Below, one piece after another: positions 1 to 13,023 of a DNA stretch of 17,324 nt. Source of the DNA: Patescibacteria group bacterium (GTDB taxonomy: Bacteria > Patescibacteriota > Saccharimonadia > Saccharimonadales > CAIOMD01); NCBI GenBank assembly GCA_025453305.1, contig JALOQO010000008.1, positions 1-17,324 of the forward strand, in the 5' to 3' direction. The translations under genes and the position numbers were made by a program. Position 1 is the stretch's first letter. Each line of letters begins with the position of its first letter. The notes under the pieces are model-generated. The model did not search any database. It was not told where the DNA came from and was given only the letters and a program-made list of their open reading frames with translations.

Positions 1-8
1 TTTTGCAT

Positions 9-169
9 TGGTGACCCCGGCGGGATTCGAACCCGCGATCTTCTGGATGAGAACCAGATATCCTACCCACATTCTGCGGGCCCGAAACTACATTCATGAA
101 AGCATAGCTTTCAGAAGTAGGTTTCCTTGCAATCCGCCACCGGCGGATCTCACGCTAGACGACGGGGCC
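9..169 (-). tRNA. tRNA-Glu (anticodon CTC) interrupted in the D-loop
   Basis: Read on the minus strand, the 5' acceptor GGCCCCG (169-163) pairs with CGGGGTC (19-13), followed by discriminator A and an encoded CCA (11-9). The T-arm is GCGGG-TTCGAAT-CCCGC. The anticodon stem TCTGG/CCAGA carries loop TTCTCAT, so the anticodon is CTC (Glu). The D-stem GTCT (160-157) pairs with GGAT (63-60), but 84 extra bases lie inside the D-loop. Removing 68-151 leaves D-loop AGCGTGGTA and a canonical 74-nt body plus CCA. All other arms are intact, so this reads as a functional gene that needs splicing rather than a pseudogene. Glu tRNA identity is strong; intron status is inferred. Confidence 0.9.
68..151 (-). 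other. 84-nt intron-like insert in the tRNA-Glu D-loop
   Basis: The insert begins after a U (152) and ends in G (68), the rule for group I introns, although an identical GTG at both edges lets the boundary slide by up to 3 nt without changing the product. It contains a perfect 7-bp hairpin (132-148, stem ATCCGCC), a second perfect 7-bp hairpin (97-113, stem TGAAAGC, loop TAT) enclosed by CTAC/GTAG, and GGAAACCTA (118-126), which resembles the P4/P5 joining segment of bacterial group I introns. At 84 nt it is far below the usual size of a self-splicing group I intron (about 200 nt or more), so its removal mechanism is unknown. Confidence 0.7.
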
Positions 170-190
170 AATAAAGCTAGTAATAATTGT

Positions 191-196
191 AGTATA
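191..196 (-). promoter_or_regulatory. Likely -10 element for tRNA-Glu
   Basis: TATACT on the minus strand lies 21 bases before the tRNA 5' end, in an A/T-rich stretch. The matching -35 is poor (a T-run), so this rests mainly on the -10 hexamer and its position. Confidence 0.35.
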
Positions 197-246
197 AGAT
201 AGGCTAAATAAGCAAAAAATCAAAAACTACCATTTTAACTTTAAAT

Positions 247-273
247 AAAACAAAAGACCTAGTTTCCTAGGTC
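247..273 (-). terminator. Rho-independent terminator after the RRM gene
   Basis: On the minus strand the perfect 7-bp stem GACCTAG/CTAGGTC closes a GAAA loop and is followed by TTTTGTTTTA. It lies 28 bases past the stop of the RRM gene and is positioned to end that transcript before the tRNA-Glu promoter. Confidence 0.85.
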
Positions 274-300
274 AATTGCTTTAAAGCGATTGTAATAAAA

Positions 301-3415: not shown

Positions 3416-4381
3416 ATGACCAGTTTAAACTCACCAAGACAGTGGCATCGCCTAACAACTAACGAAGTTTTAAGTACTGTTGGTAGTAGTGTAAATGGTT
3501 TAGACAAATCATCCTTAACAAAAAATCTCAAACAATATGGCTATATTCAACCTTTGTTTATACCAAAATGGCTAAGACCATATTTTAAATACCAGGCAAT
3601 AAGGAGTGGCAAATCAGAACAAATTACAAGTCAAGAAATGATATTAGGCGATATACTGATATTAAATAAGGGCGATATAGTCCCGGGATTAATGAGAGTT
3701 ATTAAGGTTAATGATGCTACTGTTCAGGAACATGATATTACCGGCATAAGTGCTCCGATATCAAAAAACTCTTTAGCCATACAATCAATCGCACCCATTA
3801 ACCAACAAAAAAACATGTTATTTGCTGGCACTTATATCGAAAGTGGGTCAGTAGTTGCAGTACTGGTGGGCGGATCGCAAAAAAATAAAATCTTAAAAAT
3901 AAAGCAAAGCATTAAGTTTAAAAGAAATAATATAATTACTTCTATAGATAATGCAAAAAAAATAAGCAATTGCAATGCGGTAATTTTTGATGGCCTAACT
4001 AAGCCCCAAGATATCAAAGATAGTTTTCGCGAACTTTATATTAAAAATCAAATATCATGTCTTTATCTTCTTGATTTTGACAATATCAAAAAGATAACAA
4101 CTGACTTTCCAGAAATAATTCCTCTACAAAAATCTAATAGAACAGGTGTATTTGTAACATTAAAAAAACCCTACCTAGATACTAATGTGAAAGATTTTAT
4201 TAAATCCAATAAAACAATATATTTAGGGCCTGATGCTGGTAATGATCCAGTTAGTCTGGCATCAACAGTTGCAATTGTTGCAGGTAATCAATACACCCAA
4301 ATAGGATTGTTTAAATGCAAATCGATAACTATCAACCTTTCACCATCAAACTTAACAAGTATTTTATACAACATTAAATAA
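3416..4381 (+). CDS. Soluble, catalytically degenerate P-type ATPase-like protein
   Basis: 321 aa with no membrane helices. Residues 10-44 (WHRLTTNEVL...GLDKSSLTKNLKQYGY) match the cation-ATPase N-terminal domain. Residues 61-160 follow the actuator domain: GDILILNKGDIVPG (78-91), TGIS (109-112) where active enzymes have TGES, then FAGTYIESGSVVAVLVGG (136-153). Residues 187-234 recall the P-domain: AVIFDGLT (188-195) where DKTGTLT belongs, and an IKDSFRELYIKN...ISCLYLLDF stretch where enzymes have TGD. GPDAGNDPVSLA (271-282) mirrors the hinge GDGxNDxPALxxA. The transmembrane helices and nucleotide-binding domain are missing. The reading frame is uninterrupted for 321 codons and has an AAGGAA ribosome site 7 nt before the ATG, so it is probably expressed. 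Pump activity is not possible; role unknown. Confidence 0.75.
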   Translation: MTSLNSPRQWHRLTTNEVLSTVGSSVNGLDKSSLTKNLKQYGYIQPLFIPKWLRPYFKYQAIRSGKSEQITSQEMILGDILILNKGDIVPGLMRVIKVNDATVQEHDITGISAPISKNSLAIQSIAPINQQKNMLFAGTYIESGSVVAVLVGGSQKNKILKIKQSIKFKRNNIITSIDNAKKISNCNAVIFDGLTKPQDIKDSFRELYIKNQISCLYLLDFDNIKKITTDFPEIIPLQKSNRTGVFVTLKKPYLDTNVKDFIKSNKTIYLGPDAGNDPVSLASTVAIVAGNQYTQIGLFKCKSITINLSPSNLTSILYNIK

Positions 4382-4647: not shown

Positions 4648-4674
4648 AATCTCTGTTAAATCGGAGATTTTTTT
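4648..4674 (+). terminator. Rho-independent terminator of the small transcript
   Basis: AATCTC (4648-4653) pairs with GAGATT (4664-4669) around a 10-nt loop, followed by a T-run to 4674. The stem is short but the T-tract is good. Confidence 0.65.
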
Positions 4675-4699
4675 GTTATAGTATGCTTTGTTGGTTTGC

Positions 4700-4776
4700 G
4701 GCAGGGTAGCTCAGATGGTCAGAGCGCAGGACTCATAAGCCTGAGGTCGCGAGTTCAATCCTCGCCCCTGCTACCA
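4700..4776 (+). tRNA. tRNA with CAT anticodon (elongator Met or Ile2)
   Basis: Acceptor GGCAGGG pairs with CCCTGCT (4766-4772), followed by discriminator A and encoded CCA. The D-stem is GCTC/GAGC and the T-arm GCGAG-TTCAATC-CTCGC. Anticodon CAT is at 4734-4736 in loop CTCATAA. The 31-39 position is an A-G mismatch, leaving four good pairs in the anticodon stem. The acceptor pairs at its first position, unlike initiator tRNA, so this is elongator Met or the Ile2 tRNA that TilS converts to lysidine; tilS lies 0.6 kb downstream, but sequence alone does not decide. A TATAGT at 4677-4682 could be its own -10. Confidence 0.9.
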
Positions 4777-4781
4777 AATTG

Positions 4782-4807
4782 AAAACCTCACGCAATGTGG
4801 GGTTTTT
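4782..4807 (+). terminator. tRNA terminator, copy 1
   Basis: The stem AAAACCTCAC/GTGGGGTTTT (one G-T pair) closes loop GCAAT and is followed by a T. It sits 6 bases after the tRNA CCA. Confidence 0.8.
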
Positions 4808-4820
4808 GATTTGTGACAAA

Positions 4821-4843
4821 GGCGAGGGTTGACGAGCGACCTC
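4821..4843 (+). repeat. Segment complementary to the tRNA T-arm
   Basis: This 23-nt stretch is nearly the reverse complement of tRNA bases 4743-4766 (variable loop and T-arm). GGCGAGG, TTGA and GCGACCTC pair exactly, with one G-T wobble and one small bulge between them. It is repeated at 5008-5030. A read-through transcript could fold the two together around the terminator. Confidence 0.7.
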
Positions 4844-4860
4844 ACTTAAGGGGGAGCAGA

Positions 4861-4891
4861 TTATTGTCAAATGCATTTTATTTGACAATAA
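4861..4891. repeat. Perfect 12-bp inverted repeat
   Basis: TTATTGTCAAAT (4861-4872) and ATTTGACAATAA (4880-4891) flank a 7-nt spacer. It lies in the unique segment between the two tRNA-derived direct repeats and could be a protein-binding palindrome or hairpin. Confidence 0.85.
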
Positions 4892-4898
4892 ATAGTTA

Positions 4899-4931
4899 GG
4901 TGATGGAATAGCCAAAGGCTAGTCTGTCACC
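4899..4931. repeat. Two-step hairpin between the direct repeats
   Basis: The outer stem is GGTGA/TCACC (4899-4903/4927-4931) and the inner stem TAGCC/GGCTA (4909-4913/4917-4921) with loop AAA and 5-nt internal loops. It immediately precedes the second tRNA 3' fragment. Confidence 0.65.
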
Positions 4932-4940
4932 GTGCGATAA

Positions 4941-5030
4941 TTCAATCCTCGCCCCTGCTACCAAATTGAAAACCTCACGCAATGTGGGGTTTTTGATTTG
5001 TGACAAAGGCGAGGGTTGACGAGCGACCTC
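4941..5030 (+). repeat. Direct repeat copy 2: orphan tRNA 3' fragment and terminator
   Basis: Identical to 4754-4843 but without a 5' tRNA half in front. It carries the T-loop to CCA (4941-4963), the terminator (4969-4994) and the anti-T-arm segment (5008-5030). Its right edge abuts the 5' end of the MazG-like gene. The arrangement resembles the att duplication left by elements that integrate into tRNA 3' ends, though only 97 bp lie between the copies. Confidence 0.95.
4969..4994 (+). terminator. tRNA terminator, copy 2
   Basis: Exact copy of the 4782-4807 hairpin and T-run. Here it would insulate the mazG-tilS-ftsH run from upstream transcription. Confidence 0.75.
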
Positions 5031-5058
5031 GCAGTTTCAGGATATTATTAATCGCGCC

Positions 5059-5343
5059 ATGCAAATTCGTAAAAAGTACGAACAATTAGAAATTGAAAAG
5101 TTTGGGCGAAAGTGGAATGGCCTAGAGCAGACGCTGGGATTTGTAACAGATGTAGGCGAACTAGCAGAAATTGCTCAAATAAAAGAAGGTATACGCGATG
5201 GTGAAATTGATATCGATACTCGCTTAGCGCACGAATTAAGCGACTGTCTTTGGTCGGTTATTGTTATTGCTAATACCTACGGTATAGATATTGAGCATGC
5301 CTTTTTAACTACTATGGACGAATTAGAAAACAGATTTAGTTAG
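5059..5343 (+). CDS. MazG-like nucleotide pyrophosphohydrolase, probably missing its first residues
   Basis: 94 aa, all-alpha MazG family, which hydrolyses nucleoside triphosphates to monophosphates and pyrophosphate. Metal-binding motifs are E34-x2-E37 (VGELAEI) and E59-x2-D62 (LAHELSDCLW). Upstream of the ATG the frame stays open and reads QFQDIINRA directly into MQIRKKYEQLE, which fits the first helix of this family, but a TGA at 5018-5020 precedes any usual start codon. The sequence changes to the tRNA-derived repeat at 5030, so the repeat appears to have replaced the original start. No ribosome site is evident before the remaining ATG. It heads the tilS-ftsH run, with a 9-nt gap to tilS. 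Probably active if translated. Confidence 0.8.
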   Translation: MQIRKKYEQLEIEKFGRKWNGLEQTLGFVTDVGELAEIAQIKEGIRDGEIDIDTRLAHELSDCLWSVIVIANTYGIDIEHAFLTTMDELENRFS

Positions 5344-12844: not shown

Positions 12845-12938
12845 CCAAGCGTCTGCGAGTACAATATAGCATAATGCTGGCACACAGAAGACATTCCTGC
12901 GAGTTTTTACTCTGGTTCATTGTATAGCAATAGCTTAC

Positions 12939-13023
12939 TATAGCTACACAATCTGACCATCATATCAAACCCACATTAATTGCCTGCTGTGCACCTGCAG
13001 AATACTTTATTAGCACTCTTGAC
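12939..13023 (+). repeat. 85-bp direct repeat, copy 2
   Basis: Second copy, offset by 179 bp. It runs into the intact CIRCE and hrcA promoter, so this is the copy attached to the functional gene. Confidence 0.96.

What the first reader, a model, noticed from the sequence alone, without database searches (positions are those of the whole stretch)
9..169. tRNA-Glu(CTC) split by an 84-nt insert in the D-loop
Every arm of the tRNA is intact once 68-151 is removed, and the D-loop becomes a normal AGCGTGGTA. The insert obeys the U|...G| border rule of group I introns and has a GGAAACCTA resembling their P4/P5 joint, yet it is under half the usual minimum size and sits in the D-loop instead of the anticodon loop. 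Either a miniature or degenerate group I intron, a non-autonomous one spliced in trans, or a new kind of bacterial tRNA intron. Patescibacteria are known for unusual rRNA and tRNA introns; whether this type has been catalogued I cannot tell.
Basis: partly seen in the sequence, partly recalled or inferred. Interest (0 to 1): 0.82.

Follow-up and report, generated by a model that had tools for sequence, protein, structure and literature searches.

The report
New RNA element inside tRNA copies
The insert in this tRNA gene is one copy of an uncatalogued folded RNA element of about 88 letters that sits, often in many copies per genome, inside spare or partial tRNA genes of tiny Saccharibacteria; it is probably not an intron, and its job is unknown.

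Summary
The insert is real, but it is neither a group I intron nor an interruption of the only tRNA-Glu(CTC). It is one copy of a repeated, covarying three-hairpin element (label 'e', mine; window 66-153, minus strand). Rfam 15 has no model for it. It occurs in 85 of 246 genomes of the window's order, own genome included, named Saccharibacteria/Saccharimonadia in most records; this genome has 24 copies. Covariation supports the pairing (124 double-change cells, 35 in shuffles). At 43 of 45 scorable junctions e replaces exactly three tRNA nucleotides, always G-N-N, mostly in the T-loop, so plain excision does not restore the tRNA. Copies usually lie in partial tRNA copies beside an intact gene; the window is one of three complete tRNAs seen broken only by e. 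An intact tRNA-Glu(CTC) lies elsewhere in the assembly. Congeners mostly carry e at different tRNAs, though at least two sites are shared. I read e as a dispersed, structure-selected RNA element living in duplicated parts of structured-RNA genes. How it spreads and what it does are inferred; no protein tested tracks it.

The parts
9..169 (-). tRNA-Glu(CTC) copy interrupted only by e; CCA is encoded at 9-11
154..169 (-). tRNA positions 1-16 (acceptor 5' strand, D-stem 5' strand)
   Evidence: identical to the intact gene at C53
66..153 (-). element e (88 nt), in place of tRNA positions 17-19 (GGT)
   Evidence: model R1 102.5 bits; junction analysis
128..152 (-). e hairpin 1 (outer UG/CA pairs, mismatch, 8-bp stem, short loop)
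84..125 (-). e hairpin 2 (long stem with conserved bulges)
66..80 (-). e hairpin 3 (contains the conserved G-U pair)
9..65 (-). tRNA positions 20-76, complete 3' part including anticodon CTC and CCA
   Evidence: 57 nt identical to the C53 gene
170..218 (-). 49 nt upstream of the tRNA, identical to the region upstream of the intact tRNA-Glu at C53 (promoter role inferred)
   Evidence: blastn match 153-218 at 100%

Best explanation
The insert is a member of a new family of small dispersed elements, found almost only in the window's order (Saccharibacteria), that act as folded RNA on the tRNA-sense strand. SHOWN: the conserved three-hairpin fold; many copies in many genomes; residence inside complete or, usually, partial copies of tRNA genes, nearly always in tRNA orientation; substitution for exactly three nucleotides (GNN) of a loop or hinge; occupied tRNAs that mostly differ between congeners. 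INFERRED: e arrives together with a duplicate of the 5' part or the 3' part of the target gene, as a single crossover with a small unit carrying tRNA-e-tRNA would produce, so the cell keeps one intact tRNA while the e copy is transcribed from inherited signals as a tRNA-like chimera. The window would be the simplest product: a separate complete tRNA copy carrying e. What the RNA then does, and which enzyme moves it, is not known; maintained covariation means some role, selfish or useful.
For: Covariation: 22 of 34 pairs with double changes, 124 double-change cells against 35.1 in shuffles, 0 of 500 as high; 132 unique copies give 4042 Watson-Crick, 209 G-U, 66 A-C, 93 other cells, with a G-U pair in hairpin 3 in 108 of 123, which favours sense-strand RNA. 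Copies: 24 in own genome, 85 of 246 order genomes. Sites: 43 of 45 junctions replace 3 nt, all G-N-N. Neighbourhood: 94 of 139 distinct sites have a same-strand tRNA within 130 nt upstream or 420 nt downstream; the flank-match test is passed by 41 of 51 upstream and 29 of 46 downstream cases. In two complete genomes 17 of 20 copies lie within 200 nt of a same-strand tRNA. Turnover: no shared tRNA-side between congeners G070 (11) and G077 (10), none between G149 (10 copies assigned) and G157 (7), one between G157 and G217. Uninterrupted tRNA-Glu(CTC) at 15 of 16 relative loci, which were chosen for their tRNA-Glu match. Complete e-carrying tRNAs: window and L141 by ARAGORN among 169 joined sites, L213 by eye.
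Against: No transcript data. No mobility protein found: tyrosine recombinase in 229 of 246 genomes, mostly one; reverse transcriptase 2 of 10 e-positive vs 2 of 10 e-negative genomes, Y1 transposase 5 of 10 vs 2 of 10, IS110 0 of 20. Turnover is not complete: congeners G070 and G077 share at least two sites that lay outside the tRNA-side count because no intact tRNA is on the locus, a D-type tRNA-Glu copy (L254, L263) and a site upstream of a dprA-like gene, the latter also in G061 of another genus; G070 and G077 also both occupy tRNA-Pro(TGG) and tRNA-Gln(CTG), on opposite sides. This looks like a resident function at some places. Promoter duplication is clear in only 4 of 22 five-prime copies (30 of 30 identical nt without gaps; the rest 16 or fewer). 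45 of 139 sites have no close same-strand tRNA, in part from contig ends and cargo.
Confidence: 0.55

Rival explanations
1. Cis-acting switch or overlapping tRNA: the e copy and the intact tRNA share one transcript, the antisense stretch between them (A) pairs with the intact tRNA segment, and the e copy supplies the alternative half, so each locus can make either a normal tRNA or an e-bearing tRNA-like RNA.
For: In 3' copies the spacer holds a degenerate antisense copy of the tRNA 3' end: 29 of 41 beat at least 99 of 100 shuffles. It pairs better with the intact tRNA than with the e copy in 41 of 41. Lowest-energy folds pair the acceptor 5' strand with the e copy in 34 of 41. T runs follow both the intact tRNA (38 of 41) and the e copy (29 of 41). 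Some sites are kept between genomes.
Against: Shuffling the spacer gives nearly the same fold preference: 122 of 164 (74%) against 34 of 41 (83%). In one search A was chosen by its match to the intact tRNA, a bias. The antisense signal is weak in 5' copies (5 of 28 at 99%, 12 of 28 at 95%), and a first pairing test found none (4 of 116). Most occupied tRNAs differ between congeners.
Confidence: 0.23
2. Attachment site of an integron-like or tRNA-targeting integrative element: e is the structured arm of an att site, and genes are sometimes captured between the tRNA and the e copy.
For: tRNA fragment duplication on either side, and insertion in D-, anticodon- and T-loops, resemble integrase sites in tRNA genes (recalled). 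Genes lie between a tRNA or e copy and the next e copy at L203, L204, L208, L060, L220; e of the same tRNA-Lys type occurs twice around 2.7 kb in L203.
Against: In the sites listed most e copies lie within about 100 nt of the tRNA, without cargo. Most genomes carry one tyrosine recombinase, with or without e. The G-U bias favours sense RNA over folded DNA.
Confidence: 0.12
3. Inert small repeat (REP/MITE-like) that landed in duplicate tRNA pseudogenes; no RNA role.
For: Dispersed, patchy, multi-copy, in duplicate tRNA fragments.
Against: Strong compensatory change across copies, a constant 3-nt substitution rule, near-constant orientation, and no e-tracking transposase among those tested.
Confidence: 0.1
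4. Bacterial tRNA intron (miniature or degenerate group I, or a new type) that is spliced out to give tRNA-Glu(CTC).
For: All arms intact without the insert; two further tRNAs broken only by e (L141, L213).
Against: Three tRNA nucleotides are lost at 43 of 45 junctions; intact paralogue in the assembly; no group I match; no RtcB in 20 of 20; copies are usually partial tRNAs.
Confidence: 0.05

Closest known systems
Group I introns in bacterial tRNA genes
   Same: RNA structure interrupting a tRNA loop in bacteria.
   Different: 88 nt and three simple hairpins, no Rfam match; substitutes for 3 nt; found mostly in the T-loop, also D-loop, hinge and anticodon arm. A cyanobacterial survey reports introns of 22-49 nt only in the anticodon loop (PMC5733544, passages).
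Short insertion sequences / intervening sequences in CPR rRNA genes (PMC11270868, passages)
   Same: Same wider bacterial group; in Ca. Saccharibacteria 64 of 66 rRNA insertions were short (250 bp or less) without intron or endonuclease.
   Different: Those are in rRNA; the word tRNA does not occur in the main text. Whether any of them is e was not tested.
REP / MITE-type dispersed palindromic repeats, IS200/IS605-derived (recalled)
   Same: Short, hairpin-rich, multi-copy, patchy.
   Different: Sits inside tRNA-like sequence with a 3-nt substitution rule and near-constant orientation; no Y1 transposase match in the complete e-rich genomes G039 and G149.
Integrase attachment sites in tRNA genes and integron attC sites (recalled)
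   Same: tRNA fragment duplication, loop-centred sites, folded elements, occasional cargo genes.
   Different: No dedicated tyrosine recombinase tracks e; an RNA-like domain of 88 nt lies at the junction.
Staphylococcal cell-wall tRNA-Gly lacking elbow nucleotides (recalled)
   Same: Loss of conserved D-/T-loop residues in an extra tRNA copy.
   Different: Here a structured domain replaces them, in many isoacceptors.

Membership tests
Group I intron | Conserved catalytic core detectable by the Rfam group I models | tested here: not met
   no group I match up to E 5 in window 1-300, none up to E 2 in 12 loci with copies
Group I intron | Precise excision restores the host RNA | tested here: not met
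   3 host nucleotides missing at 43 of 45 scorable junctions; splicing itself not testable
Group I intron | Self-splicing with guanosine | not testable with these tools
   needs in vitro transcription
Archaeal-type tRNA intron | RtcB-type ligase in the host | tested here: not met
   0 of 20 genomes of the order, while 9 of 14 control genomes were positive; own genome and endonuclease EndA not tested
Integron attC / tRNA-integrase att site | Dedicated recombinase tracking the sites | tested here: not met
   PF00589 in 229 of 246 genomes, mostly one per genome, e-rich and e-free alike
Integron attC / tRNA-integrase att site | Recombination at the site | not testable with these tools
   no reads, no assay
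IS200/IS605-derived MITE or REP | Y1 transposase in genomes with copies | tested here: inconclusive
   5 of 10 e-positive, 2 of 10 e-negative genomes
IS110 bridge RNA | IS110 transposase in the genome | tested here: not met
   0 of 20 genomes, 10 of them e-positive
Known RNA family | Match to an Rfam 15 model at gathering score | tested here: not met
   only tRNA reached gathering score; weaker matches touching e (e.g. a coronavirus 5'UTR model at 15.3 bits, cut-off 150) read as chance
Functional tRNA | Intact D- and T-loop elbow nucleotides | tested here: not met
   GGT of the D-loop replaced in the window

The most novel reading that the evidence does not exclude
Saccharibacteria carry an RNA-level mobile element that lives inside tRNA loops: each occupied locus encodes two overlapping tRNAs, a normal one and an e-bearing tRNA-like RNA, and the e-bearing form (complete in the window) is the working product, a tRNA-based vehicle for spread or for a non-translational task.
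Probability: 0.25. Interest if true: 0.95.

Novelty: categorically new. Interest (0 to 1): 0.85.

Why it matters
A covarying RNA element present in about a third of the sampled genomes of a bacterial order, obeying a three-nucleotide substitution rule in tRNA loops, fits no described class that my searches found (Rfam; papers). If it is mobile it would be a new way for a parasite to live in an essential gene family without destroying it; if it is a regulator or an alternative tRNA it would add a layer to tRNA biology in reduced genomes. It also means that tRNA annotation in Saccharibacteria can contain false ends, as in this window.

Tried and rejected
Group I intron, Rfam searches: no match. 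Viruses and plasmids: no blastn match in phages or plasmids; the single IMG/VR pattern hit (L081) has no tRNA and no model match. Pattern scan of genome contigs: 71 stretches; the covariance model confirms 63 and finds nothing in 8, all 8 titled as other phyla. Integrase, reverse transcriptase, RtcB, Y1 transposase, IS110: none tracks e; the 10 e-positive and 10 e-negative genomes were chosen by me. Helix between the antisense spacer and the e copy: not supported. Fold preference as evidence for a switch: undone by the shuffle control. C66/C53 as one mis-assembled or exchanged locus: considered because C53 carries, upstream of its tRNA, what looks like the tail of a D-type copy, of the same form as D-type tRNA-Glu copies in G018, G070 and G077; it cannot be settled without reads. 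A reading frame inside e and a T-box reading of the dprA-upstream sequence were considered by eye and dropped. The dprA-upstream sequence matched neither tmRNA nor an Rfam family. On checking this report I found that the statement 'congeners share no site' was too strong; two shared sites are now told, and I lowered the best explanation from 0.60 to 0.55 and raised the switch from 0.20 to 0.23.

Full report
What is there. On the minus strand, window 169-9 reads as a tRNA-Glu with anticodon CTC whose D-loop is interrupted. The automatic calls (ARAGORN 9-83, Rfam 12-83, 35.9 bits) use the end of the insert as a false 5' half; this is the weakest of the 33 tRNA matches in the genome. An intact tRNA-Glu(CTC) lies at C53:12763-12838 of the same assembly. 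The two share 66 identical bases (window 153-218: 49 upstream, positions 1-16 and one more G) and 58 identical bases (window 8-65). Against that gene the window has tRNA positions 1-16, then 88 nt, then positions 20-76; GGT is missing.

The insert is a family. A DNA search of 60 genomes (own genome included) found the insert, apart from the tRNA, at many dispersed places at about 70-86% identity. Aligning 23 copies showed a common element. A covariance model was built from 22 of them; the one left out, C43a, runs into a second copy. It finds 24 copies in this genome at E 0.1 or better, the weakest at 28.9 bits, and matches in 85 of 246 genomes of the order, own genome included, in 62 of 132 genera. 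In a sample of the phylum it matches 11 of 379: ten of the order, own genome included, and one weak partial hit at a contig edge (how many of the 379 belong to the order is not given). Scored candidates were capped per genome (18, 11), so high counts are lower bounds. Of 71 pattern matches in genome contigs the model confirmed 63; the 8 without a match were all titled as other phyla.

It behaves as an RNA. In 22 sequences 96.3% of cells of the three-hairpin structure pair (79.5% in shuffles), with 124 double-change cells (35.1 in shuffles), and sliding the partner by one to three columns destroys the signal. RNAalifold, predicting for itself, gives nearly the same fold with 23 of 33 pairs showing double changes. 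In 132 unique copies, on an alignment fitted to the model, the pairs are 4042 Watson-Crick, 209 G-U, 66 A-C and 93 other; one pair of hairpin 3 is G-U in 108 of 123. Without that pair and two pairs whose register is doubtful (columns 69-111 and 75-105) it is 57 G-U against 25 A-C, 23 of the 57 from one pair, so outside hairpin 3 the bias is modest. It favours an RNA of the tRNA-sense strand without proving it. Rfam has no counterpart at permissive thresholds.

Where it sits. Of 139 distinct sites, 94 have a same-strand tRNA within 130 nt upstream or 420 nt downstream; 45 have neither. The flanks match that tRNA by the test used in 41 of 51 upstream and 29 of 46 downstream cases. In this genome 16 of 24 copies are within 450 nt of a same-strand tRNA, against at most 2.4% expected; the eight others include the window copy itself, copies at contig ends, and one in an antisense copy of tRNA-Phe. 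In complete genomes G149 and G157 it is 10 of 11 and 7 of 9 within 200 nt. Opposite-strand cases exist but are few. The flanks of e are themselves tRNA sequence. Three arrangements recur: a 5' part of the tRNA with e in the D-loop or hinge, upstream of the intact gene; a longer 5' part with e in the T-loop, upstream; and a 3' part with e in the T-loop, downstream, often ending in CCA. tRNA-Pro(TGG) copies carry two e (L091, L127), and tRNA-Pro(GGG) copies carry e in the anticodon loop (L207). Where the tRNA match on both sides of e is exact over at least 5 nt (45 of 139 sites, tRNA on the same locus or, for the window, C53; gaps of -2 to 8 allowed), e replaces exactly three nucleotides in 43: GGT 22, GTT 12, GCA 2, GCG 2, GGC 2, GTG 2, GAA 1; in two it replaces two. 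By position the 45 are 33 T-arm, 6 hinge, 2 D-loop and 4 anticodon arm. This rule is the strongest single argument that e is a unit, and that simple excision does not recreate a tRNA.

Complete e-bearing tRNAs. When the flanks of 169 sites were joined with GGT as stand-in, ARAGORN found a tRNA across the junction in two: the window and L141, a tRNA-Gly(CCC). L213 carries a third by eye, tRNA-Gly(GCC). The window is thus unusual in its own family: a whole tRNA copy rather than a half.

Turnover, with its limits. Counting tRNA and side, congeners G070 and G077 have 11 and 10 occupied sides (from 15 of 15 and 15 of 19 copies examined) and share none; G149 (10 of 11 assigned) and G157 (7 of 9) share none; G157 and G217 share one, tRNA-Lys(TTT) 3'. 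But G070 and G077 both occupy tRNA-Pro(TGG) and tRNA-Gln(CTG), on opposite sides, and among copies without a tRNA on the locus at least two are shared: a D-type tRNA-Glu copy (L254, L263; hairpin 1 changed on both sides) and a site upstream of a dprA-like gene, the latter also present in G061 of a second genus. At the dprA site e stands in a partial copy of the 5' end of a long conserved non-coding sequence without Rfam match and replaces GGG, so e is not restricted to tRNA. Uninterrupted tRNA-Glu(CTC) genes are found at 15 of 16 loci of relatives, which were fetched because their tRNA-Glu matched.

The antisense spacer. In 3' copies the stretch between intact tRNA and e contains a degenerate antisense copy of the tRNA 3' end (29 of 41 beat at least 99 of 100 shuffles; mean score 12.4 against 6.2). 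In 5' copies the signal is weak (5 of 28 at that level, 12 of 28 at 95). A different test, helix between e-copy flanks and spacer, gave nothing (4 of 116 beat all 20 other-locus controls, 12 of 116 all 20 shuffles), but it left out the nearest 14 nt. The spacer pairs better with the intact tRNA than with the e copy in 41 of 41, though it was chosen by that match. Lowest-energy folds put the acceptor 5' strand on the e copy in 34 of 41 and the intact 3' third on the spacer in 32 of 41, but a shuffled spacer gives the first result in 122 of 164, and in 5' copies it is 13 of 14 against 55 of 56 shuffled. I therefore keep the switch or double-tRNA reading as a rival, not as the finding.

Mechanism. 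One intact tRNA plus one e-bearing part, on either side, with e in the distal part, is what a single crossover between a tRNA gene and a small unit carrying tRNA-e-tRNA would leave: left of e gives the 5' arrangement, right of e the 3' one. That is inference. The region upstream is duplicated without change in only 4 of 22 five-prime copies. No candidate enzyme tracks e in 10 e-positive and 10 e-negative genomes of my choosing: reverse transcriptase 2 and 2, Y1 transposase 5 and 2, RtcB 0 and 0, IS110 0 and 0; tyrosine recombinase occurs in 229 of 246, mostly once, and was not found in the incomplete own genome. Protein genes lie between a tRNA or e copy and the next e copy in a minority (L203, L204, L208, L060, L220), among them NUDIX-like (L220, L060) and LexA-like (L203) genes, named by eye.

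Literature. Eight searches of open-licence PMC full text (no preprints) showed no paper on such an element in the listings. Two papers were seen in passages: a cyanobacterial survey that places tRNA introns only in the anticodon loop (PMC5733544), and a survey of rRNA insertions in CPR bacteria in which 64 of 66 Saccharibacteria insertions are short and intron-free (PMC11270868). Whether those are e is open.

Limits. The genome is a 69.6% complete MAG in 97 contigs. The window copy lies 8 nt from a contig end, and C53 carries what looks like the tail of a D-type copy, so an exchange between C66 and C53, in the cell or in assembly, is possible. It would not affect the family. No expression data exist here.

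Noticed in passing
L259 1588-2060, L264 1539-2180, L143 minus strand 4650-5290: Long (about 450-650 nt) conserved non-coding sequence upstream of a dprA-like gene (named by eye) in three genomes of two genera, without Rfam, tRNA or tmRNA match: perhaps another undescribed structured RNA.
   Followed up: partly
L064 547-707, L220 5398-5556, L221 448-607, L166, L175, L160, L174: Head-to-tail double e; the first copy is short, lacking hairpin 3 in the case looked at (L064).
   Followed up: no
L219 4232-4318 minus strand: e inside an antisense copy of the tRNA-Phe 3' end, an exception to the orientation rule.
   Followed up: no
L203 7066-9687; L220 4819-5398; L060 867-1501; L204 12417-13365: Protein genes (LexA-like, NUDIX-like; toxin-antitoxin-like pairs just beyond the last e in L203 and L220; named by eye) between a tRNA or e copy and the next e copy.
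   Followed up: partly
L141 4895-5187: tRNA-Thr(CGT) followed by a tRNA-Gly(CCC) broken only by e; in the window's genome (C75) the same tRNA pair is kept with a double e between them.
   Followed up: no
L061 about 3890-3960 (G000:C53 about 12890-12960): Upstream of the intact tRNA-Glu a lipoprotein-like ORF ends at GGGTAGGATATC followed by an antisense-like stretch, as if the e-bearing half of a D-type copy had been exchanged.
   Followed up: partly
window 9-83: ARAGORN and Rfam both mis-place the 5' end of the tRNA by using the end of e as acceptor strand; other Saccharibacteria annotations may share this error.
   Followed up: no
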